Of a DNA stretch of 64,000 nt, positions 27,728-62,560 are shown piece by piece (within the stretch, counting starts at the first letter, position 1; every line of letters begins with the position of its first letter). The stretch is from Umbilicaria muhlenbergii. Its lineage: Eukaryota > Ascomycota > Lecanoromycetes > Umbilicariales > Umbilicariaceae. The position numbers were made by a program, and so were the translations under genes. The DNA lies in the NCBI GenBank assembly GCA_000611775.1, contig KK106985.1:2156291-2220290 (forward strand), given 5' to 3'. The notes beneath the pieces are model-generated. The model was not told where the DNA came from. It saw only the letters and a list, made by a program, of their open reading frames with translations, and searched no databases.

Positions 27728-28200
27728 CTGTGTCTGTCTACTCGGCACACTATCTGTTCGAGATCACTGGTTGTATATTAGATATTCAAGCTTTATGTTG
27801 TGACTAAAAACCCCAGTAGACTTTAACTAGAACTGTACTTCCACTCATATAAAAATTAGTTCCAGGTCGTTGTAATTGCCCTATACCATGCAGTTAAATA
27901 ATATAGTTATGTCATGATGTAGTGACATATCTATTAGTTAAGTAATTTAATAGTACATAGTAAAACTCTGCATCTTTTTCTTTTTTTATTTATTTTATTT
28001 CTTCATTAAGTGTATGCAGTTTAAAACTATGACACTGACTAGTAATTTAATAATACATTTGTGAGAGAAAACTCTCTGATCAGTTTATTTTATTAATTTT
28101 TTTTAGCAGCTGCTATTGATGTCAAAATTACACAATTTTAAATATTTTTTTAAATATCTCCTCAACTCTTTTCTTAATTTTTATCCTCAATCTCTCTCTT
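27728..28200. other. Start of the AT-rich, gene-free block
   Basis: Base composition changes within about 100 bp of the OST3 stop codon to strongly AT-rich sequence. 27,910-27,975 (from TGTCATGATGTAG to AAAACTCTGCATC) resembles the first 80 bases of the E2 LTR found at 39,746, so a decayed LTR fragment is likely. 27,975-28,200 is one copy of a direct repeat that recurs at about 29,016-29,222. No coding frame. Confidence 0.6.
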
Positions 28201-28204
28201 ATGA

Positions 28205-28765
28205 TAATGTTTATGAAAGTTAATCATACATAATAAGCTTCTGAAGTCAACATTTTTAAATTAATATTTGTAAAGACTGATCATATATAATAAGCTTTCA
28301 AAGTCACATTTTTTAATTAATATATGTGAAGATTAATCATACATAATGAGCTTCTGAAGTCAATATTTAAGGCAATATATGTAAAGATTAATCATGTGTA
28401 ATAAGCTTCTAAAGTCACATGTTTAAGGTTAATATTTGTGAAGGCTAATCATATGTAATGAGCTTTTAAAATCAATATTTTTAAATCAATGTTTGTGAAA
28501 GCTGATTATGTGTAATGAGCTTTTGAAGTTAATATTTTTAAGTCAGTGTTTATGAAAGCTGACTATGTGTAATAAGCTTTCAAAGTCACATGTTTAAAGT
28601 TAATGTTTATAGAAGCTGATCATACATAATGAGCTTTTAAAGTTGATGTTTGAGGTTAATGTTTATGAAGGTTAACTATGCATAATAAGCTTTTGAAGTC
28701 ACATATTTAAGGTTAATGTATATGAAGATTAATCATACATAATGAGCTTCTGATGTAAGAGGGTG
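28205..28765. repeat. 57-bp minisatellite, about ten units
   Basis: A tandem array with one AAGCTT or GAGCTT core per unit at about 28235, 28292, 28348, 28403, 28460, 28517, 28574, 28631, 28687 and 28744. The spacing is 55-57 bp. Each unit reads roughly TAATAAGCTTYTGAAGTCA, a T-rich stretch, then TTTGTGAAGRYTRATCATA. Units differ mainly by transitions, and TAATAAGCTT and TAATGAGCTT versions partly alternate. Confidence 0.85.
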
Positions 28766-29015
28766 AGTATACAACAGATCATCATATAAGTGTTGAATAA
28801 AATATTATAAACAATATAATCATGATAAAGTCAATGCAGTGATTATATGTATTCTATTAAGTGATAAAAGTTGATCACTGAGAAAGCAGGTTTTTGAACC
28901 TCTTTGTGAAGAGTTTTCACTTAATGTCAAGGCACTAAGCGCTGAGTCATCATATTTAAGCTATAGTATTGTACTATAGTGTCATATTATAATGTTGTAC
29001 TATAATGTTATACTG

Positions 29016-29866: not shown

Positions 29867-30163
29867 NNNNNNNNNNNNNNNNNNNNNNNNNNNNNNNNNN
29901 NNNNNNNNNNNNNNNNNNNNNNNNNNNNNNNNNNNNNNNNNNNNNNNNNNNNNNNNNNNNNNNNNNNNNNNNNNNNNNNNNNNNNNNNNNNNNNNNNNNN
30001 NNNNNNNNNNNNNNNNNNNNNNNNNNNNNNNNNNNNNNNNNNNNNNNNNNNNNNNNNNNNNNNNNNNNNNNNNNNNNNNNNNNNNNNNNNNNNNNNNNNN
30101 NNNNNNNNNNNNNNNNNNNNNNNNNNNNNNNNNNNNNNNNNNNNNNNNNNNNNNNNNNNNNNN
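29867..30163. other. Assembly gap (297 N)
   Basis: Run of N. The true length is unknown. The sequences on the two sides belong to different element types (LINE to the left, Ty1/copia to the right). Confidence 1.
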
Positions 30164-34900: not shown

Positions 34901-37900
34901 CTCAAGAGATAATGAGAGCTGAGCATGCTGAAGTTTTCAAAGCATTCTAGCTGCAGTCATGGCATTCAATGTAGTCATGAACAGCTTATTCACAGGAAAT
35001 CTTTCATTTTCATCATAATCATCTGCAGAGAGCCTGCTATCAAATGAAATCACTGTGTGTGATGATGTGAGCATCATGTACTGAATTACTGAAGTCATCA
35101 ATCAATACCCTCAGCTATGAGAAGATTGAGGCAATGTCATTAATGTTTCAGAGTCAGAGTGAATGAACATATTACTTCTTAATAACTGAAGAGAGCTTTA
35201 CAAGGCTGAGCAAGTCAAGGTGTACTCATTGAGAAAGTAAGACAAAGAGCTCATTAATAAGACATTCAACAAGCTACATGCTGAAAATCACTTAAAATGA
35301 GCATCAATCATCACCCTGTTCACATACCCTTGTTTCATCATGTGAAGAGATACTCAAGAAGGCTGTAAAGACAGAGTTGTCATGAATATATGAGCTTTAA
35401 ATAAAATAACAATGTCAGACGTCTACTCAGTGTCATCTCAAGTTGAAATCCTCACAGCAGTACATGAGTTCAACTACATATTCACAGTAGACTGCAGCAG
35501 CTTCTTTCATCAATAAAGGATAAAATCAAAGGCACATCACAAGCTTATCATATCCTCTCACTGAGGCCAGGAAGTATTCAAAGTGGTGATGATGAAATAT
35601 AAAAACTCATCAGCTTATGTACAAAGAATGATAAACAAAGTCCTTTAAGAGCAACACAAATTCACATGAGTTTATATGAATGACATTGTCATATTCTTCA
35701 ACACGCTGAATGAGCACCTACATCACTTAGATAGTGTATTCAGAGTGTTAACAGAGAAGAATATTTGCCTCTTTCTTAAGAAGTCATTTCTTGATTATTT
35801 CTTAATAAAGCTTCTTAGTCAGAGAGTTGATGCTTTAAAACTAACAACAGTGAAAGAAAAGCTCACAGCAATTACATGATTAAAATTCCCTAAATCACTG
35901 AGCGCTCTTAAGAAATACCTTGATCTTATCAGGTACCTTCAACAATACATATCAAAATATGCAGTTATTTCAAAATCACTTCAAGAACAAAAAACACTGT
36001 TAAACAAGATTATTAAGAAGTGATCAGGTAAATCATTTAAAGGCACAATGAAGAAAAAGATGATTAAAAAAGTAAAGATAAACATGTCAACTTCATAAGA
36101 GCTTCAAGCATTCAATCAACTTCAAGCAATGTTCTCTCAGTTAATTATATTAACTCACTTTAATTTAACCTGTCAGCTGTATGTTGACCTAGACGTGTTG
36201 AAAGAATTCAGGTTCAATGCTCACATTTATCATCATTAAAGTGACAGTGAAACCAAGGCAGAACTGACTCAGGAGGGGAAACAAAAGAAAATGAAGTTTA
36301 TATGTTTCCTCAGCAGGCTGCTTGCAGATGCAGAGATTAAATACTGATTCACTGAGTTGAAGGTGACAGGTTTAATATGAGTTGTTCAGAAAATATGACA
36401 CATGATTGAATCAGTCATCAAGGTCATTATCATATATACTGATCATGCAGCAACAGTCAACATAATATGTTAATCAAGTCTGTCAACAACATTAACTGAA
36501 AAGATGAATCTACAGCTCATCTGAGCATCTGAATATCTTCAACACTTTCAACTTGACATTCACTACAAGCCTGATAAATTCAATGTGATATCAGACGTGT
36601 TATTCAGATTGACAGAGCAAGATTATTATCAAGAGTCAGATATCTCAATTCTTGACATTCTTTACACATCATCAGTCTACAACATGATGACATATCTGAT
36701 TTCACTGATGAAGTTAAACTCAGAGTTTCAAGAGCACCTGATTGCTGAATATGATCAGGACGCTCAGTGAATCAGAGTTAAAATCATGATAAAAGCAAAC
36801 ATCAGATTAAAAGAGAACACCTCAGCTTTATCATATAAAATAATAAACAGCTTGATCTACTACAAGGATCTGAAAATCAGCCTTCATATAAACATTTCAT
36901 CAGTAAATGACTTGAAAAAGGAACTGTTTCAGCAAGCACATGATGAGCTGAGACACCTCAAATATGCAAGGATGCATGAGCATCTCACTGAGAAATTATA
37001 CTTCTTCAACCTCTTTAAAAAGCTTCATGAGTTTATCTGCTCATGCCCTCAATGCCAGTTATGTTAAACACTTAAACATAAATCATACAGTGCTCTTCAA
37101 TTAATTCTGATGTCTTCATGACCTTTTCACATCATTTCATTAAACTTCATACTAGGACTGCCTGTAACACCTCTGCTGAAAGAATACAACTGCATAATGT
37201 CTTTAACAGACAAATTCAGCAAAGTGATAAACTTTATCCCTGACAAAATCACATGAAAGAATACACAATGAGTCATAAAGTTCCTCAACTGTTTAACTCT
37301 TATGAACTGAGGCCTCCTCAAGGCAATCTTGACAGACAGGGACTCAAAATTCATAGCAGGAATGTGAAAAAAAATCTTTAAGAAATTAAAAGTTAAATCA
37401 TTACTATCAACAGCATATCACCCTCAAACAAATGAGAGCTCTGAAATCATGAATCAGACAGCAGAAATTGCACTGTGATACTTTCTGATATCATTGAAAG
37501 ACATTAACAGTTGAGTCATGATATTATCAAGGATGCAGGCAGCCCTGAACAATTTTATAAAATATTTCAGCATCATTAAAACACCAACTGAGGTTCTTTA
37601 TGAATTTTAAACTCATGAAGTCCTCAACCTCTTATGAGTTGATGAGAATAGTGAGCCTACAAATGAGGCAGCCTCAAGGGAAATTCAAGACACAAATCTC
37701 ACAGACTCAATGACAGAAATGATGAAATACAAGCTTACAGCAGTTGACGTGAAAGATGTTATAACTTTCATCATCATTCACATGAAGGAATATTATGATG
37801 ACAGGCATACACTGAAGTTCTTTAAAGTCAACAACATGATCAACCTACAGTTACACTGAGGGTACACTATATCAAGCATTCAGAACAAGAAGATCAAACA

Positions 37901-39745
37901 GCAGTTCATGAACTCATTTAAGATCATCAAGAGAATCAAGTGCTTAACTTATAAGTTAAATCTCCCTCCTCATTAATGAATTCATGATGTCATATCAATA
38001 GCTCATCTGAAAGGTGCAATCACAGCTGACTTATATAATCAGCTGAGGTCAGATCACTCATCATCAGTGATGATGAACAGTGACTTAAATCACTATGAAA
38101 TTGAACATCTGCTCAAGAAGAGAACAAGGTGCTCTGAATGCAATGATTGCAGAATAATCACTGAATACCTTGTATGATGAAAAGGCTACAGCTCTGAACA
38201 TGACATGTGATATAATGTTAAGAATCTGAGGAGCGCAAGAGATCTCATAAAGATGTATAATGACACACATATGAGAGCTCAGGTCAAAGCACTGACAGTT
38301 AGTGATAAAAGTTGACACCTTCAAGAAGAAATCAATAGAAGATTTTTTAAAATCTTTTAAAATCTCATCACATGACCTTGATTGCTCTGCGTGCTATGAA
38401 ATAACACTTAGTGAAGCATACTTATCATATTACAAAGCATCATACATGGCATGCTCAGAGAAATCCCTCACTGAATGACATGTGAAGTCAGAATAATTCA
38501 CTGTCTCACTGCTGAACAGTGAGCTCTACACCTCACTTCCCTCATTACTCAACAAATTATGTCAGAGAACCTCACTTCCTCTGTCACAATTAATTCAGTG
38601 AACCTCCCCTTGTTCACAAATGATACAGCATCATCATATAGTCACTGCTCAACATTTTACAGTGAGTCTCAGATCAACTGTCAGTTACTTATCATTACTC
38701 ATCACTCATAAGGAAGAAATAATCATGATGAAATCACATGATGTTGTGATGAGAGATCAACCCACAGCACGCACTTATCACATGAGCACATTAAGCAGGC
38801 ATAACTTTGAGAACCTTTATTATAACAACAAAGATGAAGTAAACCCTGATGATGAAATTCAGTACTATGCAGATGAAGACAGAGGCTCATGCAACTTATA
38901 TGATAAAGATGATGAGCTCATCAAGATTAGCTGACCTGATGAAATCATGATTAATTCACAGAAAGTTACTGTGAGTGCTTTTATAAAGATGACAGCAGGG
39001 CTGATCACAGCTGATTAAATCACAGAGAACATCAACAATGATGATGACAGCAATGAGTCTTTGAAATTAATTAAAACATCACTCAATATCACCTGTGACA
39101 AAATTAGCCATCATAGAGCCTGATTGAGGGCAAACAGACACAGGGAAGAGGATTTTAATATTAATGAAATGATGCAGATAACAGATGAGGATATGAAGAA
39201 AGTCATTTAAATTCTGATAAATTCATTCTGAAGAATGAACTCAAAGGAAGGAGGATGATCACACACAGATGCAGAAGAATATAAACATGAGTGAATAATT
39301 CAATATTTACCTGATGTATGTAAATTCATGATTATGATACTTTTTCTCCTGCTCAGTCTTTTGTCAGTTGTAATGAAGAATGCCTTGAGGTCTCCTCTGA
39401 TGAAATTAAAAAAAATATAATGATCTTGAGGGTTTCATGCAGTGTTGTTCATGATGAACAAACTCACAAACAATGAAAGGGTCTGAAGAAAGAGGATAAG
39501 AGAGTTATAAAGTATTAAATCCTCACAAGTCATATAACCTATCTAGTTATAAGAGATACAGGGTTTAAGATCATTAGTGAATTTGAGAATTCAGCATGAG
39601 ACATACAAATCACCTGCAAATATCATATATCAGATGTGACAGGATCACTCATCACTGAGAATAAAATCATCTGACTTGTAAGCTTTCAAATCAAGGAAAT
39701 GCACATCACTCACTTCATACAAATGTGCAATGATCATTGCACATG
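31989..39745 (+). mobile_element. E1 internal region: gag, protease, RT, RNase H, integrase, chromodomain and 3' accessory stretch
   Basis: Fossil parts recognisable on the plus strand: gag-like region (about 32,600-33,900), a C2H2-like finger (CHEEF...LHKHV, about 33,975-34,040) and protease-like stretch (about 34,250-34,900). RT lies at about 35,050-35,900, with VYMNDIVIFFNTLNEHLHHL at 35,670-35,730; RNase H at about 36,150-36,600, with the FQLDIHYKPDKFNVISDVL motif. Integrase runs about 36,880-37,950 from the HHCC zinc region (CPQCQLC at 37,045), and a chromodomain-like stretch lies at about 38,085-38,270. 38,600-39,500 has a further acidic open run of 104 codons (38,620-38,934) of unknown nature. 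CpG is almost absent. Broken dozens of times. Confidence 0.75.
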
Positions 39746-39959
39746 TGTCATGATATAATAACACATCTGAGCTAGCGCTTCTTAAGTGACTTAATGATGC
39801 ACATAATAAAACTCTGTGCTGCTTCATCACTCCTTCTTTCACTCCTTAGTTATTAATTTTATATAGTTAAGATCATATAATCTTTATATATTTATATCTC
39901 ATGCTGTCATGAACCTAGACTATACTTCTCTTTCTAGTAAGAGATGCTATAATCTTACA
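39746..39959 (+). repeat. E2 5' LTR
   Basis: 214 bp, TGTCATGATATAATAAC to AATCTTACA. Same length as the 3' copy; differences seen are transitions. Retains AGCGCT, one of the few CpG sites left in the block. Confidence 0.88.
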
Positions 39960-41148
39960 GTTTTAATAACTTTACCTTTCAAAGGATGATGGCCTGAGAT
40001 AAGATGCAGACTTGAAATCAATTACATTAAACTTCTAAAGCAGAATGAGACATGATGATGAAGAATCAACAAAATGATTATGAAACATTACTCATTTCCT
40101 CTGACATCAGTGAAGTGAACCTCATGAATGAAGGATCCTCAGGTGAAACAGTGCACAACATTAATAATGAGATCATGCAAGTGAGATGACAGTGAGATGA
40201 ACTTTTTAAGCAACAAGAGCTGCAGCAGCTTTGAATGAAAGTTTTAACATTAAAAATCAACCTACTCAAAGATCCTGCTACTTATGTTAATACCTCAGCT
40301 GAGAGATTTCTTGACTTTATGAATGTTGAGTTCATAATGAGCAAGCGCTGCGCTGATGAAATGTTGTCAATATAAAATGTATGATTAAGAATTCAGGCAA
40401 AGGAGTTGCTGTTATATCATGATAAGAACATGAAAGAGCACCTGAATTAAATATGAGATGCAAGAAATATCTTTCATTTTAACTCAGTTAATTTCCCTCA
40501 TGAGGAGGATAAGGTGATTTACATCATGTAATATTTAAAGAGTAAATCAAAGGAGGCGTGACTGCAAGATGATGAAATTAAAAATTATTTCACTGTTATC
40601 TGAGATGATTTTATGAAATTCCTGCTCAACATTATTAAAGACTCTGTGAATCATCAGCTTCACATCACTCAGTTGTATAATGATGCTGTTCAACTACCTC
40701 ATTAATCAGTTCAAGCTTTCAATAGTTATTTAAGCACCTTAAAAGCTCAGTTATCTCTCTACAGTGAAGAGCACATGAGGACTCACTTCTTCACAAAATT
40801 GAAGTCTGAGGTCTGAGCAGTCATGATGAATTATCAGAACTTACTCACAACTTGAAAAAGAATCATCACATTAACTGCATGCTTGAAGAATAACCTGCAT
40901 TTGAGAGATGTCATGAAATTGAAAGTAAATGTTAATATGACAATTACCTTCAGCTGTAAACTTAAGCTGTTGTTGAAGCCTGCTGAGAATAAGGATCACA
41001 AGCCTGATGAGGGCAAGAAGAAGAGCAAGTGAGATAATAAACATGAAAGCAGATCACTGAAGGCTCCTGAAATAAAAAACTTATCACACATGACTTGTTG
41101 AAATTGCAATCAGAAGGGACATTATTCCTCTGATTATTCACAATCTGT
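39960..41148 (+). mobile_element. E2 gag region
   Basis: Fossil gag with a CCHC knuckle at about 41,095-41,140 (NCNQKGHYSSDYS). Ends at the E3 insertion. The matching uninterrupted part of E2' (61,250-61,350) shows the sequence across the site. Confidence 0.75.
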
Positions 41149-41582
41149 TGTAACAGGTGATGTCATAATGACAGAGATAATATAATCATTCAATGAATTA
41201 TATCAAGGTACAATCAATCATGTTGCAGGTATGATTATACCACTTGATCACATATAAACTTGAATAGGACTAGAGGCTGTAGACTTATGAGATTGCATTT
41301 AATACATGAGTTGAGCATGAGCTCTTAACTATGAATTTACCTGTGATTATATAATACTTTAAAAGACTCATGTGTGATTGTACTGCTCTGTGTGTATAAT
41401 CTTACTGCTCAGGGTGCTCATGCTCTGAGCATCATGAGTGATCAGATGCTTGAGGTGCTCATGTTTTAAGCATCATGAGTGATCAAGTGCTTAAGGTGCT
41501 CATGCTCTGAGCATCATGAGCAGTATCACATGTACATCTGCTATGTGTATCAATCAGGTATCATTTAGTGAAAGGTGTAACA
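41149..41582 (-). repeat. E3 3' LTR (left copy)
   Basis: 434 bp, reads TGTAACAGGTGATG to GGTGTAACA on the plus strand. Holds three tandem units of about 41 bp (GGTGCTCATG...GAGCATCATGAGTGATCA) near 41,410-41,520. Confidence 0.9.
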
Positions 41583-41629
41583 TTAACTCCCTTTTTAACA
41601 TTTTCATCCTTGAAAACTCAACCTTCCTC

Positions 41630-42200
41630 ATGCCTTCATTTGATATCAAAAAGAAGAAGTCATCTACTTCTCATCATTCCTGTTTAACTGATTTGATCAC
41701 TGAGAATGAAAGAATTATCATGTGAATGTGTAATCACTGCTTAATTGATGACAAGAAGTGCAAGATGTTGAATGATTATGATAAGTGTGACATCTGCATT
41801 CAGCTGAGCATCTCTTGTGACTTGTTCATATCTCTGAAGGAGATCAACAAGGTGAGTGCAGAGATTCATCATCTGAAAAAGAAAAAGAATGCCATCATGA
41901 CACAAAAGTGAGAGATAAGAGTGAAGAAAGAGAGACTTCACAAACAAATTATTTTTCTGAGGAAGAAGCAGTCAGACTTGATCTGTACTGAACTTTGAAA
42001 CATTGAAGAGCTGAAGGTGAATGAGCATGTGACTGTTGTAATTGCTGATTTTTTTAACAGGTCTCTCCTTGACTTCTTCATGCTTAAGGTTTTTAACTTC
42101 AACAGCATGAACTGACTTCCTGCAGATTTCTTTGCTGAAACTGATGCAGTTTTGCTGCACAATGAGTAAGATTCTCTTCTGATTCTCATGTGTTTCCTTC
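41630..42200 (+). pseudogene. Antisense accessory gene relic of E3: Zn2Cys6-spaced cluster plus coiled coil
   Basis: Opposite to the E3 pol strand, between its integrase end and 3' LTR. The open run at 41,726-41,911 (61 codons) starts MCNHC and holds six cysteines spaced C-x2-C-x6-C-x8-C-x2-C-x6-C, the spacing of GAL4-type Zn2Cys6 DNA-binding clusters. A lysine-rich coiled coil follows (EIHHLKKKKNAIM and onward). Before it lies a Lys/Ser-rich run (KKKKSSTSHHS). The E3' copy at 62,000-62,560 keeps all six cysteines. Fossil; host versus element origin is not settled. Confidence 0.6.
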
Positions 42201-45200
42201 ACTGTCATATCCTTTTCATTTGATCAGATAATGTGACTCATCATTTATATCTTGCTGATTTAAAATTTCTTCTACCTTGAATTCAGCATCTTGACTTTTC
42301 AGGTTGATCTCTGATGAATTTTCTTATATTGATGTTTTCAGGTCTGCTGATTTGAGTAGTGATACATGAAATATCAGATGTATTCACATAATGAGTGAAA
42401 GTTTAAGCTCATAGTTGACACTTCTCTTAGTTTTAGCAATTTGAAAAGATTTCAACTTCATGTGATTCAATTTATTGCTAGATCACTTCATCTTGATATT
42501 ATGATGCAAAAGATATACTTTATTCTTCTCTTTGAGAGTAGATCCTTTATCTCTCTTTTTATTATAATATACTGCTGATTTTTTTAAAATGAATTTAATA
42601 TTCTTCTGCAGCATTTTATGCAAGTTCTTGAGGTGATTTACTTGTACTTTTACTTTTTATGTTATCATTACTAGTCCTCTGACCTCATTCATAGCTGAGT
42701 TGAAATCATAATTGATGTAAAATGATGATACTTCAGTTGTCTCTGTTGCTGCTGAATTGTATATTAACTGAGCTATCAGTAAGAGTTCTACTCAATTAAT
42801 TTGCTGATAATTAACATAACATTGTAGATATTATTTTATAGTTTAATTTAATCATTCTGTCTGTTCATTCATCTGAGGATGATATGATGTTGATAACTTG
42901 TGATGAATCCTCAACTGATTCATTAATGACTTTCAGAACTTGAAGGTGAAGAGTTTATCTTTATTAAAGATTATCTTTTTCAGCAGTTCATGATTAACTG
43001 TTATAATTCTTAAAAACATATATGTGAGTTCCTCTGCTGATGATGCTTTATTATAAGGTATGAAGTATTCATACTTCATAAGTCTGTCAGTGATAATTAA
43101 TATTGAATTATAGACTGCTTTCATCAGAGGTTCTTTCAACTTTGATAACTTAATCATAAAGTTTAATGTGATGCTTACTCATGATCTTAATGATGTTCTT
43201 GATGACTTGAATAAATCATATGATTTATGTTGATCTGCTTTGCTTCTTTAATAAATGTTACATTTTTAAATGATCTCTTCAACCTTCTTTCTCATGTGTG
43301 AGAAGTAATATATTCTCATGAGTCATTTTATTATTTTGTTAATTTCCTGATGATTGTGTGTCTTGTTGAAATGACTTTCCTCTATTAGCTTTCATTGAAG
43401 ACTAATAGAAACATAGATCAAGTCTTAAAAAAGTAATAAATCTTTCTCCTTTTTGAAGTTTTCATGATCTTTAATATTCTGAAGAACCTGCTGTGCTAAC
43501 TTATCATTCTTCAACACTTTTTGAATCTCATTTTTAAAAATGTCATCTTTTACTTATATGATGAGGTTGAACTGTTTGTTGAAAGACATGTTCCCTTGCT
43601 CATTCTTCTGAAGGATAGCATGATTGATGATTGACTTATCTTATAAGTAATCAGCTCATTAATTGAGAGTGTCTGCTTTGATGTTCTCTGATTCTTTTTG
43701 ATAATGAATCTTAAAATTATACTGTGACAATTCTTTTGATCAACACACTTGTTTTTGATTTAAGACTTTCATTGTTATAAAATACAACAGATTCTTATAA
43801 TCTGAGTATATCTGAACCTCATGTTTAAATCCTTTCAGATACACATATCATTGCTTAAATGCATCAACAATAATTAACAGCTCCTTGTCATGTATCTTGT
43901 AACTCATTTCAGCACTTGAAAACTTTCTTAAATAAAAAGCTATTAACTGTAAACATCTCTTATCATCTGACTGATTGATGCATGCTCTTATAACTCTGTC
44001 TGACGCATTCATCTTGAGCGTAATAGGTTTCTCAGGGTTGAAACTCATGAGAATGAGTTGAGAAGTGAATCTCTTCTTCAACTTATCAAAGATTTTCTGT
44101 GCTTCAGATGATCATTTAAATTTCTGATCTTTTCTGATCAACTCTGTTAAAGGTGATGTGATTTTTGAATACTTCTTAATAAACTTTTTATAGAAGTTTG
44201 TGAACTCAAGGAAGAACTGTACTTCCTTGATGTTCTTTAATACTGATCATTCAATCACAGATCATATTTTCTTAAAGTTCATTCATAATTCTTCTGATGT
44301 TATGATGAAGTTTAAGAAGTGTACTTCCTTGAAATGAAAAAGACTCTTCTCAAGCTTTACTCACAATCCTGCATCCTGAAGTGCTTATAAAACTTTATGA
44401 ACATGCTGAATGTGCTGCTCCTTTGTCTTGAAGTAGATCAGTATGTCATCAAGGTACATAATCATGAACTGATTTAAGTATTCTCACAGTATGTTATTAA
44501 TAAAAGCCTGAAATGTTGCTGACATGTTTGTTAATCTGAAAGACATTATCAAATACTCATAAAGTCCTGATCTTATTTAAAACACAGTCTTTCATTCATC
44601 TTCTTCTTTAATATGAATCTGATTGAAGGCTCTCAGAATATTGAACTTGATAAATCATTATGCTCTCTGAAACTGATCCTGCAGTTCTGAAATAAGCAGC
44701 AAAGGGTAACTGTTTTTGATGATGATGTTGTTCAGCACTCAGTAGTTGACACACAACCTGAGTGAATCATCTGACTTTGATACAAACAGTATTGAATATT
44801 CAGCTGAAGATTGTGATTCTCATATAAATCCTTTTTATAAGTTTTCCTTTAAGTATTCTCACAAAGCGTTTAACTTTTGAGGTGACAATGAGTAGATAAG
44901 TTGCTTCATTGATGTGTAATCTTTCATGATCTTGATTTCATGATCTCATTTTTAATATTTCAGTAAAGCATCCTGATCCTTCACAGCTGTAAATAATTCC
45001 TTGAAGTCTTTATATTCTTTAAAGATAAATAACTTGATAACAGAGTTTCAGTCATCTTCAATTCATCTGCTTCACAGTATCTTTACATCAGAATTCTTCA
45101 GTTCCTCATGCATCTCTTTTGCTGATATAATGAAGATCTTCACACCTTCAGGTGAGTTCAGGACTGAATATAATTTATTAAAATTATCACTCTTAACAAA

Positions 45201-47313
45201 GTATATCTCATTTTCAGCTCAATCAATCATCAGATTGACTGCTCAGAGTCATGATATTTTTAGAACTATATCACTTCCTGATTGCTTCATTATGTTGAAT
45301 TGAATCTTTTCTCAATGTTGATTTAAATGCATGAGCATGAGAACTGTCTCTCAGTTTACTCATTCATCATTGTGTTTCATAAAGGTTTTATTAAACTCTT
45401 GAAGTTTAAAGGGATTCTGCTTTACCTGTGTTCAGATTACATGTTTTGCAGTAAATCCTGAGTTCATGAAGTTCTCTGTACAGTCACTGTCTATCAGCAG
45501 TCAAGCTGACTGATCATTAACTTTGACTCAGACATGAAAATTACTCATGTCTTTCTGTGCTGCAGCAGTGAACTCTCTCTGATGCATGCTGCTCAGAGAC
45601 TTTAAAATAAGCATCTCTGAGAGCCTCTGACCTGAAGGGCCTTCTAATTTTTTAAATTAAAAGAGAAGAACTTTAAGTTCTTTTTTACATACTTAAAGTC
45701 TTCTGAATTCATCTTCTGAGCTGAATGTTTGTTCAGATCTCTTTTAAAGTATTCATTTCAGAGTTCTCATACTCTCATATGAAGTTCTCATGAAATGTGT
45801 GCTCTGTTAAAGGTAATGTATCCTCCTCTGATGATGAACTGAGAACCTTTCAGTGATGTCTCTTTGATTATATCTTAATAATTGATTTCTTCATGATCTT
45901 GTCTTTGTGTAAATGCATCTCAGATGATGTAAAAAATCTGTTTCTTTATCTCTTCTATCTGCTTCATGTACTCCTCTTTGTTGCTGAGGGCATTAAGTAT
46001 TTCAGTGTATGTTCAAATTCACTTCTCTTCATGATTAAATAATCATTTATCATTATCTTCCTTGATAAGCTCTCCTGAGCTTTCAGAATTTATTATTTTC
46101 ATGAAGTCTTCCTCTTCACTAGATGAGAGTATCATATCATCACTGTTAACATAATTATCTTCTTAATTGAACTGTTTTTACTTGACTTAATGTTCTTTCA
46201 TGTCTGTGATCAGGTCTTAATAAGAGGTTGCAGTGTATTCTTTTGCCTTCTTTGATTAACATGAGAATCATTCAGAGTCATTTTTGTCACTCTGATGAAT
46301 TACACAGCTGTCATCATAACAAGCTGTTTAAGATATAATGTTATGCTGAACTGATTCCTTCAGTGCTGACTTTTTTAACACAGCAGCATATGTCTTCTTC
46401 TTTGATGAAAAGGCTTTCATTGAGATTTAACAGTTGCATGCAAAATGTCCTGACTTTCTGCAGTTATAACAATTTCCTTTGACTCTGATACTCTTTGATA
46501 CTTGCTTGATTCCTCTCTGAAATTGATTCCTTCAGAAGGTCACATTGATTTTCATCAACTGAGAACTGTAATAAAGTTGATTATTATACTGAGTGCTTTC
46601 ATGAGACTTGTTCATCTTCAGTGATACATAATTCTTCTGGCTTTTTTTCATAGATCTTTCATATGCACAGTTGTTGATGATGACTGACTTTTTAATCATT
46701 CTGACTAAGGTACTTGATCACTCTGATCAGAAGATCTCATCTTTGATGAAGTTCTTCAAGCTCTTATAATACTGCGCAGTTAAGGCAGTGTCATCTCAGT
46801 TCATATACATAACATGTCTTTGAAAGTTGACTGCATACATCATGACAGCTTCTTTCTGCATAATGTTGTAGATTTCACGCTTCATGATTCTTTCTTAATT
46901 AATGATCTCAAACATGATTCTTATCTGCTTCTTGAACTCCTTTAAACTGATGAAGATTTCATTTGTCTCATCATCATGATCCTTCTTCTCATTTTTCATA
47001 TAGTCTCAGAGGGTCAGCTTAAATCAATTGAGGACATCAGACCTTAAATAAAAAGATGTATACAACATCTTATCAGCTTCCTTCTTGAACATGATGTGAT
47101 TGAGGTGAATGTAAGTATCAAGTTGAGTGAGAAATGAACTCAACATTCTTCATTCTTTTAAGAACTTGTCTGATGATGAGATCTTGATCTTCATCCCTGA
47201 TGACATCAGACTCTTAATGACTGATGAGTCATGACTGAAGGTTGTCATCCTTTCAAGAGACTCATGAGTCACAGTTCATTTCATGATTGATATTTTAATA
47301 ACAGTGCTCAAAA

Positions 47314-47747
47314 TGTAACAGATGATGTCATAATGACAGAGATAATATAATCATTTAATGAACTATATCAAGGTACAATCAATCACATCACAGGTATGAT
47401 TATATCACTTGATCACATGTAAACTCAGATAAGACTAAAGGCTGTAAACTTATGAGATTGCATTTAATACATGAGTTGAGCATGAGCTTTTAACTATGAA
47501 TCTACCTGTGATTATATAATATTTTAAAAGACTCATGTGTGACTGTACTGCTCTGTGTGTGTAATCTTACTGCTCAGGATGCTTATGCCTTGAGCATCAT
47601 GAGTGATCAGGTGCTCAAGGTGCTCATGTTTTAAACATCATGAGTAATCAAATGCTTGAAGTGCTTATATTCTGAGCATCATGAGCAGTATCACATGTAC
47701 ATCTGTTATGCATATCAATCAGATATCATCTAGTGAGAGGTGTAACA
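47314..47747 (-). repeat. E3 5' LTR (right copy)
   Basis: 434 bp, same length as the left copy and also with three 41-bp units. Differences to the left copy that I notice are transitions. Confidence 0.9.
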
Positions 47748-50700
47748 TCTGTGAAGAACTCAGATCTGAATAAGATCTCAGTTGTGACTGTTTCAGCATT
47801 AAAAAATGAAAACACTTCAGTGAAGGCTTCATGCTGCTGAAGCACTGAACAAAAGTAGCTTTAAAGCTTAATTTAATTGTTGATGAACAAGTTCTTCACA
47901 ATGATGATGTCATACTCATGCAAGCCTTATTGAATACAGGAGCTGAAGTCAATGTGATTTCTCAACATTTCATTATTAAGCATCAATTAACTCAGATGAA
48001 GGACTCATTGCTGTAATTTTAATTCTTGAATGATCAGAAGGCTTACTGCTTCAGTGCTTATCATGTGCATTATCAGCTTATCAACAGTTGAGGACAGTCT
48101 TAAGAATGTGAACATGTGTTTTACACTTTAAATAAGTCAGGATCACCTCTTATCCTTGAACTTTTCACTTTGAAGACTGAACATGTGTGAATCAACTGCA
48201 GAATGAAGGCGTGACGCTTTAACATTAAAAAGCAGTCTATCAAGTTACAGTCACTTGATGAATTCATAAGAGAGATTCAAGATCACTCTGCTGTCTACAT
48301 CATGATATGAATCAGTCTGAGTGATGATGCTGCATCAGAGGTGCACATATAAAGCACTGATATAACACAAGCTTTACCTGAGGAGTACATTGATTATGTG
48401 AATGTGTTTTCAACAGAGAATGCTGACCTTCTTTCACCTCATAAAATCAATGATCATGCAATTGACCTGAACAGCACAGATTCATCTTATGACTCTTTGT
48501 ATAATCTCTTCAATACTGAGTTAAGAGTGTTATGAGAATATCTGAATGATGTCTTAATGAAAGATTGAATTCATCATTTCATGAGCTCTGCAGAGGCACT
48601 CATTCTTTTTGTTTCAAAAAAAGATGAAGGGCTGCGCTTATGCATTAATTATTAAAAGTTAAATAAAATGATCATCAAGAACAGGCACCTGTTACCTTTT
48701 ATAAGTGAAATGTTGAATCAGCTTAATGAAGTTAAGTTATTTATGAAGCTAAATTTAAAGGATGCTTATCATCATATCTGCATAAAAGAGGATGATGAGT
48801 GAAAAACAGTGTTTCACATGCATTACAGTCACTTTAAGTATATGATCATGTCTTTCAGATTGATCAACACTTCAGCTATGTTTCAAGTTTACATTAATCA
48901 AGTGTTAACAGAGCTTGTGAATGTCTTTTGCATTATTTATCTAGATGACATCCTTATATACTCAGAATCATCAGTGAAACACTGAGAGCATGTTAAGCAA
49001 GTGTTAAACAGACTTCATTGATTTCAACTTCACATGAACTTTAAGAAGTGTGAATTCTTCATTATCAAGGTGAAATTCCTAGGGTTTATTATTATCACTG
49101 ACAGCATAGTGATGAATTCATGATGAGTGAACATCATATGAGACTGATCAGTATTAAGAACTTTTCAGGAAGTACAAGTCTTCCTGAGCTTTGTGAACTT
49201 TTATAGACACTTTATTAAGTGTTATTCACAAGTTGCAGCCCCCTTGACAAACCTTATGAAAGATAGCAAGAATGAAAAGAAGTTTAAGTCTTTTAAATTC
49301 TCAAATGACACAAAAGAGGTGTTTAACTGACTTCATGAAATCTTTATAAAGGCGCTCATCCTGATTCACTTTAATTCAAAGTTATGAATACAGGTGAAAA
49401 TTGATGCATTAATCATTAAGCTCATTGATATCCTGTCTCAGTTATTAAATAGTGAGGAGTGACATTTAATTACATTTTAATTGAGAAAGCTGTCTCCTTC
49501 AGAGATTTAATATAAAACTCATAATCAAGAGCTTCTAATCATCATTATAATATTTAAACATTGATGTCACTACCTCAAAGGCAGTTGTCATATCATAAAG
49601 GTATTAACTGATCATAACAATTTATGAGGATTTATGAACATAAAGGAATTGAATGACAGGTAAGCATGATGAGTAATAAAGCTCACTGCTTTTGATTTTA
49701 ATATTTTGCATCAATTTGAAAAAACCAACCCTGCTGATGTGCTGTTGAGGTGATCAGACTACAGGGATGTTGAAGAGGTGAGTAAAATCATGAAAAAATT
49801 ACTCTCAACATTTCAGAGAAAGTTAATCACTCTTGTGAACATATTCTCACTCAGATATGCTCTTATTGTGAGGCAGTTGCTTGCAGAGGTGAAGAGAATG
49901 ATCAGAATTAAAAATCTTAAACTTTAAAAAAAATGCTGAAGAAGTGATGACAAAACAACTGCTCATGATGAATATGATATAACTGTGAAACAGCTTAACC
50001 CTGTCACTGAAACTGTTGATTGCAAACAATTCATTTCACATGTGATGATAAGAGATCTTGTCATTCATGAAACAGCTGATGAAAGCCTGAGTTTACTCTT
50101 AAAAGATTTAATTCAAACTCTACAAAATGATGATTCATTTATAAAAGTGACATGCAACACTGACTGTACATCAGCAAAGTGTAAGATTAAAGCTGAAAAT
50201 CTTTAAAGATTTAACTCTGAAGGCCTTCTGTTTCATGAGGAATAAATATATATTCTGAAAGAAAAGTCAGTAAGGGCAGAGATCTTGAAACATCATCATG
50301 ATGATGCCTTGACAGAGCATTTCAGGGTAGAAAGAACTCTTAAATTGATTAACTGCAAATATTATTGAATTGATATGAGTCAAGATGTTAAAGATTATGT
50401 TGCATCATGTGACATCTGTCAAAGAGTGAAAGTGCTTAAACATCATTTCTATGATGAGCTACAGGTATTGCCTCAGTCAGAAGAATCATGACAGCAAGTC
50501 ATGATAAATTTTATTATTAACTTGCTGTTAAGTAAGTGCAAGAATTGTGTCTATGATGTGATCTTAATGATTATGAATCAGTATATGAAAATGACTCAAT
50601 ATATTTAAATCATGAAAATGATTACAGCAACAGAGTTGACTGACTTGTTTTATGAGAAAATAATATGCTGATTTAATGTACTGAAAGAGGCTGTCTTTAA

Positions 50701-53330
50701 TTAAGAATCAGTTTTCACAAGCACTTTCTGATTGAAAATGTGCTACTATTTAAGGATAAAGTATCAACTAAGCATCACCTTTCACCTGCAGATGAATGAA
50801 CAGACAGAATGACAGAATTAAACCTTAAAGCATTACTTTCATTATTATTGCTCAGATGAACAAGACAACTGAATGAGTCTTTTACCTCTGACAGAATTCA
50901 CTTACAATAACAGAACACAAGCATCAATAAAGTGTAACTCTTTTTATGTCATGTATGCTTATCATCTGAAAATGAGATTTAAAGTCAAGAATGACTTCAG
51001 GAAAGAAGAGGTACCTGCAGTAAAAAATTAAGTGAAATAATTTCATGACATATAAAAAGTGCTGTCACAATGATGAGAAAACATAGTTAAATCTCAGATC
51101 AAATATTATGATGTTAAACATAAACTGAAGACTTATAATGTGAGAGACTTGATAATGCTATTCATAAAAAACTTATGACAGAAATGCTTAAGCAGAAAGC
51201 TGTCTCACAAGTTCATTAAATTATTTAAAGTACAAGATTTGATTAAGAAACAGGCATATCAACTATTCTTATCATTAAATTATTAAATTCACAATGTCTT
51301 TCATGTATTTTACTTAAAGCTGTATGAGTGCTGATATGATGATAAGTTTATGCTGACTTTGCAATCATTAGAGTTGATTGATGATGAAGAGGAGTATGAG
51401 ATTAAAGAAATCTTGAACAAGTGAAAATATAAAAAAGAGATTTGATATAAGGTAAAGTGAAAGGAATGATCAAAAAAGTATGATCAGTGAATTTCAAAGT
51501 GAAACATGAGTGAAGCACATGAAATGCACTTAACATATGAAGCTTCTGTAGAAGGACAGCAGAGGAAGTATTAATGAAAGTTTAAAAAAAAGCTGCAGTA
51601 AAGACACTTTTTCCTGATTTTCCTCATGAGGTTTTACAGGTTTTATTGAGGCTTAATTAACACACTTATCATTGTGACACACTTTATGAGTACAGCTGAA
51701 ACATGATCATGATGACTGAGAAGTGTCAAAGAAGCAATTTCATTACAAACTATTTATCATAAATAATTTTAAGAACTGAGAATATTTATTTTACATGTCA
51801 ATCATCATTCTTCTTCACCTCATTAGAGCTTCATGTCTGACTCATCAGAGGTATTAAGGTAAGAATCATGATCATCATCTTCATTAATATTCAAGAGACC
51901 TGTCAGGTTAATCTGCATCACACTTTTGTCTGATGATTCAGAAAGAATAATCATTTTCTTCTTTTCATCTCTCATGTATCATATACACTTCACCTTCAAG
52001 GTGATGATCTTGAACTTAACTTGCATTAAAACTTAATGATGTTGTCATGAAATGAGATTCAAAAGAGCCTCAATCATGAATGATGCTTCTTTAAGTGTTT
52101 GAATTTGTGCAGCAAGATTCAGCATCTTAATGATGTCTTTTATGCACTGAGACAGGCCTTCCTCAACAATCTGATCATGAGAATCAGCAGGCTCACTGAT
52201 CTCATCAACAGCATCAATATTCTGAGTGTTCAGAAGAACTTCATCATCATTTTTCTTAACATCACTGAGCATCAGAGTGTCAACATGATCCTGTCATTTA
52301 ATCATGAGCTCTGCTGCAGGGGTCAAATTGTTTTAGTTGAGTGTCAGTTGATATCTTAAAGAAATGTCAGGGAAGTGACAGCACAAATATCTGATAATGA
52401 AGCACATCATAAATACTCTTCAAAACCTTATTGATGTGATATCATTCTTTTAACATCAGCAGAGAGATGTTCAACATTGATGTTAACTTTTTGTGTAAGT
52501 CATGCTGCTCAGTGATCCTCAGATGAGTCTTTACATCTTTTATGTACACATGCTGATGCTCTGTCAGCTCATCAGCGCTCACTTGACAGGTTTCATCATT
52601 GAGCTCAGAGTTATGAGTGCAGATCAACAAATCACAGAGGCTGACTACCTCAGAGAAAAACTTCATGAGTATTTAAACTCATCAGTGTTTACTCAGTGCT
52701 TCTAGATGCGTGATGTACAGGTTCACAATACTTTCATTTTTCAGAACAACATGAACAACATCAGTTCTTCTTGACATCACAAATTAAATCTGATTCACTT
52801 GATATCTGCTTTAAATAATAAAGACATCATGATTTCTTCTGATGAAGCACTGAACCTGCACTGCACTTGATGATCAGGGGTGAGGAAGCCTATGAACATG
52901 TCAATAACATCAGGTAAGCATCAGGTGCAGTTTACAAGTGATGTCATCATTAAATGAATTAACTACACTGAAAACATCTCAGGATATTTGAATTCATGAG
53001 GAAGAATTAATGATGATGATTCAAGATGTTATTGATGATAAGATGCTGTCATTGAAAAGCCTGAGAAGATAGACATGAAAGTTGTTGAGATTGAAAAACT
53101 TCACATCAGCAAATTCATTTATCACTGACCTGAATTAGCGCTGAACATTCACAACACACATGTCAGCAACTTTATTTATCATCAATGACATGAGCCTGTG
53201 TTAAGGTCATGACATTCATAAGGAGTTGACAATTTCACATTATCAAAACAACAGCTATCTGCTGTTACATCATATATTATGATATAAGTCAAATGACGCT
53301 GAAGGGCCAGCGCACAAGGGGGGAGGCAAT
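47748..53330 (+). mobile_element. E2 pol region and 3' stretch
   Basis: Fossil parts: protease-like ALLNTGAEVNVI (about 47,925-47,960), RT 48,480-49,120 with LDDILIYSESS at 48,943-48,975, and RNase H about 49,400-49,760. The integrase zinc region is at about 50,280-50,435 (DICQRVKV) with the core to about 51,000, and a chromodomain-like stretch at about 51,385-51,540 (YEIKEILN). 51,600-53,315 has two minus-strand runs (52,045-52,272 and 52,442-52,666) with no recognised domain; this 3' segment does not resemble that of E2'. Broken dozens of times. Confidence 0.7.
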
Positions 53331-53544
53331 TATCATGATATAATAACACATCTGAGTTAGCGCTTTTTAAGTGACTTGATGATGTACATAATAAAACTCT
53401 GCACTGCTTCACTGCTCCCCCTTTCACTCCTTAGTTATTAGTTTTATATAGTTAGGATCATATAACCTTTATACATTTATATCTCATGCTGTCATGAACT
53501 TAAACTATACTTCCCTTTCTAGTAAGGGATGCTATAATCTTACA
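53331..53544 (+). repeat. E2 3' LTR
   Basis: 214 bp, preceded by the purine tract at about 53,316-53,330 and followed by ACATA, the right half of the target duplication. Confidence 0.88.
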
Positions 53545-61000: not shown

Positions 61001-61557
61001 CTGATTATTTAAAAATTAAAGTTGAGGTAATAAACTCTTCACATGAGCTAATTAATGCTCAATAACAAAGTGTTGTGAAATCACATTGACTTCAGCTCTC
61101 ATGTTCAATAAAGCTTGCATGAGTATGACATCATCATTGTGAAGAACTTGTTCATCAATAATTAAACTGAGCTCTGAGGCTACTTTTGTTCAACACTTCA
61201 GCAGCATGAAGCCTTCACTGAAGTGTTCTCATTTTTTGATGTTGAAACAGCTGCAATTGAGATTTTATTCAGATCTGAGTTCTTCACAAGCTGTGAATAA
61301 TCAGAGGAATAATGTCCCTTCTGATTACAATTTCAACAAGTCATGTGTGATAAGTTTTTTATTTCAGAAGTCTTCATTGATCTGCTTTCATATTTATTAT
61401 CTCACTTGCTCTTCTTCTTGTCCTCATCAGGCTTGTGATCCTTATTCTCAGCAGGCTTCAATGATGACTCAGATTTATAATTGAAGATAACTGTCATATT
61501 AGCATTTGCTTTCAACTTCACAGCACCTCTCAAACATAAATTATTCTTCAAGTGTGT

Positions 61558-61950
61558 TGTAACAGGTGATGTTGTAGTAACAGAGATAATATAATCATTC
61601 AATGAACTATATCAAGGTACAACCAACCACGTCATAGGTATGATTATACCACTTGATCACATGTAAACTCAGATAAGTTAAAAGGCAGTAAACTTATGAG
61701 ATTGCATTTAATACATGAGTTGAGCATGAGCTCCTAACTATGAATCTACCTGTGATTATATAATATTTTAAAAGACTCATGTGTGACTGTACTGCTCTGT
61801 GTGTGTAATTTTACTGCTCAGGGTGCTCATGCCCTGAGCATCATAAGTGATCAAGTGCTCAAGGTGCTCATGTTTTAAACATCATGAGCAATATCACATG
61901 TACACCTGTTACACATATCAATCAGGTATCATTTAGTGAAAGGTGTAACA
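61558..61950 (-). repeat. E3' 3' LTR
   Basis: TGTAACAGGTGATG to GGTGTAACA. It is 41 bp shorter than the E3 LTRs, because it has two rather than three units of the internal tandem repeat. Confidence 0.88.
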
Positions 61951-61999
61951 TTAGTTTTCCTCTTAATGTTTTCATTCTCAAAAACTCAACCTTCCTCAT

Positions 62000-62560
62000 G
62001 CCTTCATTCAGTATCAGAAAGAAGAAGTCATCTACTTCTCATCATTCTCATTTGACTGATTCAATCACTGAGAATGAGAGGATTGTCATGTGAATGTGTA
62101 ATCACTGCTTAATCAGTGACAAGAAGTGCAAGATGTTGAATGATTATAATAAGTGTGACACCTGCATTCAGCTGAGCATCTCTTGTGACTTGTTTATATC
62201 TCTGAAGGAGATCAACAAGGTGAGTGTAAAGATTCATCATCTGAAAAAGAAAAAGAATGCTGTCATGACACAAAAGTGAGAGATAAGAGTGAAGAAAGAG
62301 AGACTTCATAAATAAATCACTTTCTTTAAAAAGAAGCAGTCAGACTTGATCTGTATTGAACTTCAGAACATTGAAGAGCTGAAGATGAATGAGTGTGCAG
62401 CTGCTGTAACTGCTGATTCTTTTAACAGGCCTTCACTCAACTTCCTCATGCTTAAAGCTTTCAGTTTTAATGACATGAACTGACTTCCTGCAGGTTTCTT
62501 TAATGAAATTGACACAGTTTCATCACATAATGAGTGAGATTCTTCTCTGACTCTCATGTG
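62000..62560 (+). pseudogene. Antisense accessory gene relic of E3': Zn2Cys6-spaced cluster plus coiled coil
   Basis: The counterpart of 41,630-42,200. The open run 62,094-62,279 (61 codons) keeps the six cysteines and their spacing as well as the ISLKEINKVS and HHLKKKKNA coiled-coil start. Fossil. Confidence 0.6.

What the first reader, a model, noticed from the sequence alone, without database searches (positions are those of the whole stretch)
41630..42200. Gypsy element carrying an antisense Zn2Cys6-like cluster gene
Opposite to pol and next to the 3' LTR, E3 holds a 61-codon run with C-x2-C-x6-C-x8-C-x2-C-x6-C, the GAL4-type spacing specific to fungal transcription factors, followed by a coiled coil as in their dimerisation regions. 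An LTR element that codes its own DNA-binding regulator on the opposite strand is, to my knowledge, not well described. It might control element expression, target choice or host silencing.
Basis: partly seen in the sequence, partly recalled or inferred. Interest (0 to 1): 0.8.

Follow-up and report, generated by a model that had tools for sequence, protein, structure and literature searches.

The report
Antisense zinc-cluster-like gene in fungal retrotransposon
A decayed jumping gene of a fungus carries, on its opposite strand beside one end repeat, the remains of a small extra gene for a cysteine-rich, probably dimeric protein; extra reverse-strand genes in this spot are already known but their job is not, and this one hints at a DNA- or RNA-binding regulator.

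Summary
E3 is a Ty3/Gypsy chromovirus on the minus strand: LTRs 41149-41582 and 47314-47747, target duplication TCTGT, RNase H and chromodomain recognised. Between its pol stop (about 42100) and its 3' LTR lies a plus-strand frame, ATG 41630 to a stop at 42167-42169, 179 codons, with C-x2-C-x6-C-x8-C-x2-C-x6-C followed by a long predicted helix. A second copy of the family (from 61558, cut by the window end) has the same frame in the same place with all six cysteines. The frame has too few stops for chance (4 against 14.3 expected) and clear codon periodicity. I read it as a dead accessory gene of the element.

[quoted passage not shown] brtn of Botrytis Boty). Beyond the cysteine spacing little ties the protein to GAL4 factors: no Pfam match above cut-off, other residues no better than shuffles, no lysines at GAL4's DNA-contact positions, no confident zinc-cluster model. 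No fungal collection could be searched, so spread and selection across families are untested. A 41-bp tandem array in U3, beside the gene, is a plausible target of its product.

The parts
41144..41148 (.). target site duplication TCTGT, low side
41149..41582 (-). 3' LTR of E3 (434 bp)
   Evidence: direct repeat with 47314-47747, 90.6% identical over 435 aligned columns (one of them flank), 41 of 41 differences transitions
41406..41528 (.). 41-bp tandem array with internal dyads, on the U3 side of the LTR
   Evidence: TRF 2.8 copies, three copies; same array in the other LTR (47571-47693); one unit fewer in copy 2
41630..42169 (+). antisense accessory ORF, 179 codons and stop, four internal TGA in E3
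41729..41818 (+). six-cysteine stretch C-x2-C-x6-C-x8-C-x2-C-x6-C
41777..41965 (+). long predicted helix, probable coiled coil (its start overlaps the last three cysteines)
42099..42101 (-). first pol-frame stop after the chromodomain (TGA; TAA at the same site in copy 2)
42117..42281 (-). chromodomain of pol
   Evidence: PF00385, E 2.1e-17, read with TGA=W
43848..44108 (-). RNase H part of pol
   Evidence: PF17919 E 9.6e-21, PF17917 E 5.9e-13
44388..44483 (-). reverse transcriptase piece with YLDD
   Evidence: PF00078 E 1.4e-5, 25.4 bits, below the cut-off of 29.6; letters
47314..47747 (-). 5' LTR of E3 (434 bp)
47748..47752 (.). target site duplication TCTGT, high side
61558..61950 (-). LTR of the second family copy (393 bp, one 41-bp unit fewer)
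61998..62537 (+). same antisense ORF in the second copy, three internal TGA and one TAA, all six cysteines kept (62097-62186)

Best explanation
The feature is the decayed copy of an accessory gene native to a fungal Ty3/Gypsy chromovirus family, lying between pol and the 3' LTR on the opposite strand (an antisense additional ORF, 'aORF-3R'). SHOWN: position, orientation, presence in 2 of 2 copies, statistical marks of past coding, six-cysteine spacing. SUPPORTED, not proved: a coiled coil after the cysteines. INFERRED: the gene was read from an inward-facing antisense promoter in or near the 3' LTR; the product was a nuclear dimer with a zinc-stabilised head; it acted on the element's own U3, where 41-bp dyad-bearing repeats lie 101-224 bases before its ATG, and so tuned sense expression. 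C-to-T hypermutation then killed the gene in both copies. My odds: accessory gene about 0.85; regulatory role, given that, somewhat under one half.
For: Inside both LTRs' bounds and at the same place in two insertions at different sites. Few stops (P 0.0008 and 0.0018), codon periodicity, shared ATG and shared terminal stop site (TAA and TGA), 540 nt without a gap. E3's internal stops are all TGA; copy 2 has TGA at three of the same codons and a TAA where E3 reads CAA; at codon 123 E3 has TGA and copy 2 CAG: what C-to-T decay gives. Cysteine motif twice in the window, 0 in 200 shuffles. Long confident helix. U3 tandem array next to the gene. A described class of genes in this position.
Against: No selection visible between the two copies (differences by codon position 21/26/27; 44 of 74 changes non-synonymous against 66% for random transitions). 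No relative found anywhere, though fungi were not in reach. Zinc-cluster homology fails beyond cysteine spacing. The cysteine part is modelled weakly (block pLDDT 49-82) and no solved fold matches with E 0.001 or better. Nothing on transcription, localisation or binding. Other Gypsy families in the window lack a homologue.
Confidence: 0.4

Rival explanations
1. Same accessory gene, but the product is a nucleic-acid chaperone, packaging or nuclear-import factor (zinc head on a lysine-rich coiled coil), not a sequence-specific regulator.
For: No lysines at the GAL4 contact positions, many lysines in the helix; non-cysteine residues give no support for a GAL4-type cluster. Import or other retroviral-accessory-like roles are discussed for plant aORF-3R (PMC7264820, passages).
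Against: The motif spacing is that of a DNA-binding class, and a dyad-bearing array lies next to the gene.
Confidence: 0.3
2. The antisense transcript, not a protein, matters: it makes double-stranded RNA with the sense transcript and damps or triggers silencing; the frame is incidental.
For: Antisense promoters and a dsRNA role are discussed for such elements (PMC7264820, passages). No protein-level selection between the copies.
Against: Stop depletion, codon periodicity and the cysteine motif point to a protein.
Confidence: 0.1
3. Capture of a piece of a host zinc-cluster gene by this one family.
For: Zinc-cluster factors are abundant in fungi (recalled), and the spacing fits.
Against: Weak likeness to the general family. 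The gene-rich part of this window gave no match better than the chance level, but no host proteome could be searched.
Confidence: 0.07
4. No gene: an open stretch and a cysteine pattern by chance, or the shadow of something else.
For: 101 of 6984 overlapping window-and-frame combinations in the repeat region have four or fewer stops, not all of which I can name as genes. The TAA/TAG test alone is weak (P 0.04, 0.08).
Against: Stops, periodicity, motif, ATG and terminal stop agree in one frame, in two copies; the copies are related, so they are not independent proof.
Confidence: 0.07
5. The coding frame is on the minus strand (a sense ORF after pol), and the plus frame is its mirror.
For: The codon-aligned minus frame has 5 stops in E3 and 8 in copy 2, fewer than most frames there; a 540-nt minus window at 41680 has 3.
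Against: The plus frame has fewer stops in both copies and carries the motif, a shared ATG and a shared stop.
Confidence: 0.05

Closest known systems
brtn, antisense gene of Boty-like Gypsy elements of Botrytis cinerea (Zhao et al. 2011, Virology 417:248; paper not held, known here through citing papers)
   Same: Fungal Gypsy element with chromodomain; additional antisense gene between pol and 3' LTR (PMC7264820; PMC4227169 passage).
   Different: Sequence of BRTN not on hand, so homology and cysteines could not be compared; nothing in the passages I saw mentions a zinc cluster.
aORF-3R genes of plant Gypsy elements (maize Grande gene23, rice RIRE2, Silene Retand, bean PvRetro13)
   Same: Position, orientation, presence in the copies of a family, function unknown (PMC7264820).
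   Different: No zinc-cluster-like cysteines mentioned in the passages read; plant hosts; Grande gene23 is transcribed from its own upstream promoter.
GAL4-type Zn(2)Cys(6) transcription factors (PF00172)
   Same: Cysteine spacing; helix after the cluster.
   Different: No Pfam match above cut-off, no lysines at the contact positions (recalled numbering), no linker proline, no support from non-cysteine residues.
HBZ of HTLV-1 (recalled; PMC7264820 mentions the antisense promoter in the HTLV 3' LTR)
   Same: Works-like comparison: antisense gene at the 3' LTR with a coiled-coil product.
   Different: HBZ is a bZIP protein (recalled); no homology tested or claimed, no transcript shown here.

Membership tests
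Ty3/Gypsy chromovirus (the element E3) | LTR pair with target site duplication | tested here: met
   434-bp LTRs, 90.6% identical, TCTGT on both sides
Ty3/Gypsy chromovirus (the element E3) | Gypsy-type RT/RNase H and a chromodomain after integrase | tested here: met
   RNase H 9.6e-21, chromodomain 2.1e-17, RT piece 1.4e-5 below cut-off; an integrase-like piece at 42933-43178 had no Pfam match, the order is read by eye
aORF-3R (antisense additional ORF between pol and 3' LTR) | Antisense frame between pol and 3' LTR | tested here: met
   41630-42169 plus strand; pol-frame stop 42099-42101 minus; LTR ends 41582; overlap with pol of about 70 bases
aORF-3R (antisense additional ORF between pol and 3' LTR) | Present in most copies of the family | tested here: inconclusive
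   2 of 2 copies in the window; no genome held to count more
aORF-3R (antisense additional ORF between pol and 3' LTR) | Conserved as protein like the other element genes | not testable with these tools
   both copies are decayed and show no selection; no intact relatives on hand
BRTN (Boty) | Sequence homology | not testable with these tools
   Zhao 2011 not held; sequence not on hand
Zn(2)Cys(6) transcription factor (PF00172) | Six cysteines with family spacing | tested here: met
Zn(2)Cys(6) transcription factor (PF00172) | Pfam Zn_clus above the curated cut-off | tested here: not met
   not listed for E3; 13.2 bits against 21 for a copy-2 fragment; GAL4 control 47.3
Zn(2)Cys(6) transcription factor (PF00172) | Signature residues around the cysteines (PROSITE-type pattern, recalled) and basic contact residues | tested here: not met
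   pattern absent in 2 of 2 copies; D-D (E3) or S-D (copy 2) where GAL4 has its contact lysines (recalled); Cys-fixed shuffles score as high in 202 and 346 of 1000. Decay may have blurred some residues
Zn(2)Cys(6) transcription factor (PF00172) | Zinc-cluster fold | tested here: inconclusive
   cysteine part of the model weak (block pLDDT 49-82), no PDB match with E 0.001 or better; only two sequences in the alignment
Zn(2)Cys(6) transcription factor (PF00172) | Coiled-coil dimerisation region after the cluster | tested here: inconclusive
   confident long helix; heptad score reached by 12 and 36 of 500 shuffles

The most novel reading that the evidence does not exclude
A fungal LTR retrotransposon family codes, antisense from its 3' LTR, a dimeric zinc-cluster regulator of its own, which binds the 41-bp dyad repeats lying between the sense promoter and its own start and so sets up a feedback switch: a zinc-cluster counterpart of HBZ that arose independently in a fungal element.
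Probability: 0.17. Interest if true: 0.75.

Novelty: new variant of a known kind. Interest (0 to 1): 0.42.

Why it matters
The function of antisense accessory genes of LTR retrotransposons is unknown; PMC7264820 says so for plants and Boty (section 5 read). A zinc-cluster-like head plus coiled coil, next to a repeated dyad array in U3, gives a testable guess: a self-coded regulator with a named candidate site. If true, fungal elements would have evolved the layout of complex retroviruses on a protein scaffold typical of fungi.

Tried and rejected
Relatives: the search for related loci with the ORF in viral contigs (13 stretches matched a pattern, none confirmed); with the two-copy alignment in genome contigs (77, none confirmed); with an RNase H piece and two RT queries in viral contigs (9, 9 and 155, none confirmed). 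These are collections of viral contigs and of bacterial and archaeal genomes, so this says nothing about fungi. Metagenome contigs were capped at 0 and not tried. No whole genome is held for the window.

Homology and fold: NCBIfam (best E 0.073) and PHROGs (best E 0.015, unknown function) gave only weak matches. PDB sequences gave no zinc-cluster factor (10, 0 and 3 matches up to E 10). Foldseek: 8 matches up to E 10 for the whole model, best E 5.2, and 0 for the piece. A profile comparison with three recalled yeast factors paired the second half of our motif with the first half of theirs, E 0.067, probability 0.8%. Pfam's Myco_arth_vir_N (E 0.0084, below its cut-off) covers 11 lysine-rich residues and was rejected as compositional.

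Selection between the two copies: no signal. Codons 34-93 differ at 10 of 180 sites and codons 123-180 at 41 of 174, which looks like conservation of the core; I do not count it, because decay depends on local sequence.

Mutation context: I first took the decay for CpG loss alone. Of 41 LTR differences only 10 fit that by a strict test; C-to-T also hits CpA, CpT and CpC, with CpG already nearly gone. So TGA may stand for a lost CGA or TGG; reading it as R is an assumption.

Other families in the window: the best matches of the ORF outside its two copies have E 0.30 or worse.

Papers: ten searches counted (on antisense or zinc-cluster genes in elements; on the mutation pattern); two listings were capped (20 of 63, 10 of 145). 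Nothing in the titles and abstract starts listed showed a zinc-cluster antisense gene in an LTR element. PMC3248453, a survey of LTR elements in fungi, has no 'antisense' or 'zinc' in its main text (word search). Passages of PMC3538342, PMC4522978 and PMC5408684 did not bear on it. Not proof of absence: most subscription papers, Zhao 2011 among them, are not held.

Full report
WHAT IS THERE. The window looks like a contig of a filamentous fungus (my judgement from its genes; species not determined). Positions 1 to about 27,700 are gene-rich, GC near 52%, CpG near expectation; the 2-kb bins from 28,001 on have CpG at 0 to 0.16 of expectation and low GC. E3 is an LTR retrotransposon on the minus strand. 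Its LTRs are 41149-41582 and 47314-47747, 90.6% identical, 41 of 41 differences being transitions, with TCTGT on both sides. A related stretch on the other strand near 61290 shows the sequence without the insertion. Pfam recognises RNase H (9.6e-21), a chromodomain (2.1e-17) and, below cut-off, a 32-residue RT piece (1.4e-5). So E3 is a chromovirus. An integrase-like piece at 42933-43178 had no Pfam match.

THE ANTISENSE FRAME. On the plus strand an ATG at 41630, with 47 bases between it and the LTR, opens a frame of 179 codons that ends with TAA at 42167-42169. The first stop of the pol frame after the chromodomain is at 42101-42099 in E3, and copy 2 has a stop at the same site; the two genes would converge and overlap by about 70 bases. 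The 61-codon run of the finding is the part between the first two TGA codons. The second family copy has its LTR from 61558 and runs off the window; it has the same frame at 61998-62537, equal length without gaps, 86.3% DNA identity, ending in TGA, with all six cysteines.

IS IT MORE THAN CHANCE? Four internal stops in 179 codons compare with 14.3 expected in E3 (4 of 5000 shuffles as low) and 4 with 13.5 in copy 2 (P 0.0018); TAA and TAG alone give 0 against 3.1 (P 0.04) and 1 against 4.1 (P 0.08). Among 6984 overlapping window-and-frame combinations of 540 nt in the repeat region, 101 have four or fewer stops; the ORF is among them, with pol frames and some I did not identify. Base use differs strongly by codon position (A: chi-square 31.3 and 29.2; LTR control 3.6), though the truly coding RNase H stretch gives only 3.1. 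The six-cysteine pattern occurs in the window only in these two copies and in none of 200 shuffles. The codon-aligned minus frame is the runner-up (5 and 8 stops); I prefer the plus frame for its fewer stops in both copies, its shared ATG and stop, and the motif.

WHY IT IS BROKEN. The four internal stops of E3 are TGA; copy 2 has TGA at three of the same codons and a TAA where E3 reads CAA; at codon 123 E3 has TGA and copy 2 CAG, as when a CG is lost in opposite ways. TG-for-CA swaps between the copies number 13 in the ORF and 27 over 2049 aligned columns, against 1 and 2 for AC/GT, 4 and 10 for TC/CT, 5 and 9 for GA/AG. Changes are not confined to CpG. This is RIP-like C-to-T hypermutation. 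Between the copies there is no trace of selection on the protein (codon positions 21/26/27; 44 of 74 changes non-synonymous against 66% for random transitions), as expected for two dead copies and no help in proving the gene.

WHAT THE PROTEIN MAY BE. The cysteine spacing is that of Zn(2)Cys(6) clusters. A long helix overlaps the last three cysteines and runs on, modelled with block pLDDT 94 to 98 over residues 41-80 of the piece; its heptad score is reached by 12 and 36 of 500 shuffles in the two copies. But membership in the GAL4-type family fails: Pfam Zn_clus is not listed for E3 and gets 13.2 bits (cut-off 21) for a copy-2 fragment, GAL4 giving 47.3. Against a rough profile of six recalled yeast domains the scores are 8.0 and 6.2 bits; whole shuffles reach these in 0 and 5 of 1000, but shuffles that keep the cysteines in place in 202 and 346 of 1000: the signal is the cysteines alone. 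The positions of GAL4's contact lysines (recalled) hold D-D in E3 and S-D in copy 2. Decay may have blurred residues, but C-to-T changes do not turn lysine into aspartate (inference). So: a zinc-cluster-like, probably dimeric protein, whose DNA binding, if any, is not of the standard kind.

HOW IT MAY WORK. An antisense gene beside the 3' LTR must be read from a promoter in or near that LTR pointing inwards (inference). On the U3 side lies a 41-bp tandem array with internal dyads: about three units in both LTRs of E3, one unit fewer in copy 2 (TRF itself did not report the 41-bp period in copy 2). It ends about 100 bases before the antisense ATG and would lie upstream of the sense start too (inference; no start was mapped). 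A dimeric product binding the array and damping or boosting sense transcription is the simplest model, alike in layout to HBZ of HTLV-1 (recalled). Shown: gene remains, motif, array. Inferred: transcript, nuclear site, binding, effect. The main rival keeps the gene but makes the product a nucleic-acid chaperone or import factor.

WHAT IS KNOWN. [quoted passage not shown] PMC4227169 describes a Boty-like element with gag-pol, chromodomain and brtn (passage); PMC8365987 mentions brtn as the additional ORF of BcGypsy1 (passage); PMC5987419 reports a Monilinia transcript similar to truncated Pol and BRTN (passage). Zhao 2011 is not held, so I cannot say whether BRTN has the cysteines. [quoted passage not shown] orientation is not given in the text.

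VERDICT.

Noticed in passing
39748-53544: E3 seems to be nested, in opposite orientation, in the gag (zinc-knuckle-like letters by eye) of another Gypsy family: its flanks 40882-41142 and 47749 onward match one uninterrupted stretch around 60438-61552 on the other strand, and LTR-like repeats lie at 39748-39959 and 53333-53544.
   Followed up: partly
27700-64000: A sharp border near 27.7 kb separates gene-rich DNA from 36 kb of repeats with CpG almost gone, CpA and TpG enriched and TpA not enriched: RIP-like decay with an atypical mark, which also hits other C contexts.
   Followed up: partly
35373-38228: A third, more distant Gypsy pol on the plus strand (22% identity to E3 pol over 965 columns) with some fairly open frames; no homologue of the antisense ORF seen.
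   Followed up: no
28195-28768: An array of about 57-bp units, copies 60-76% alike, at the border of the repeat region.
   Followed up: no
29870-30160 (about): A run that translates as X in all frames listed, i.e. an assembly gap or masked stretch.
   Followed up: no
41406-41528, 47571-47693, 61815-61888: The 41-bp U3 repeat differs by one unit between family copies.
   Followed up: yes
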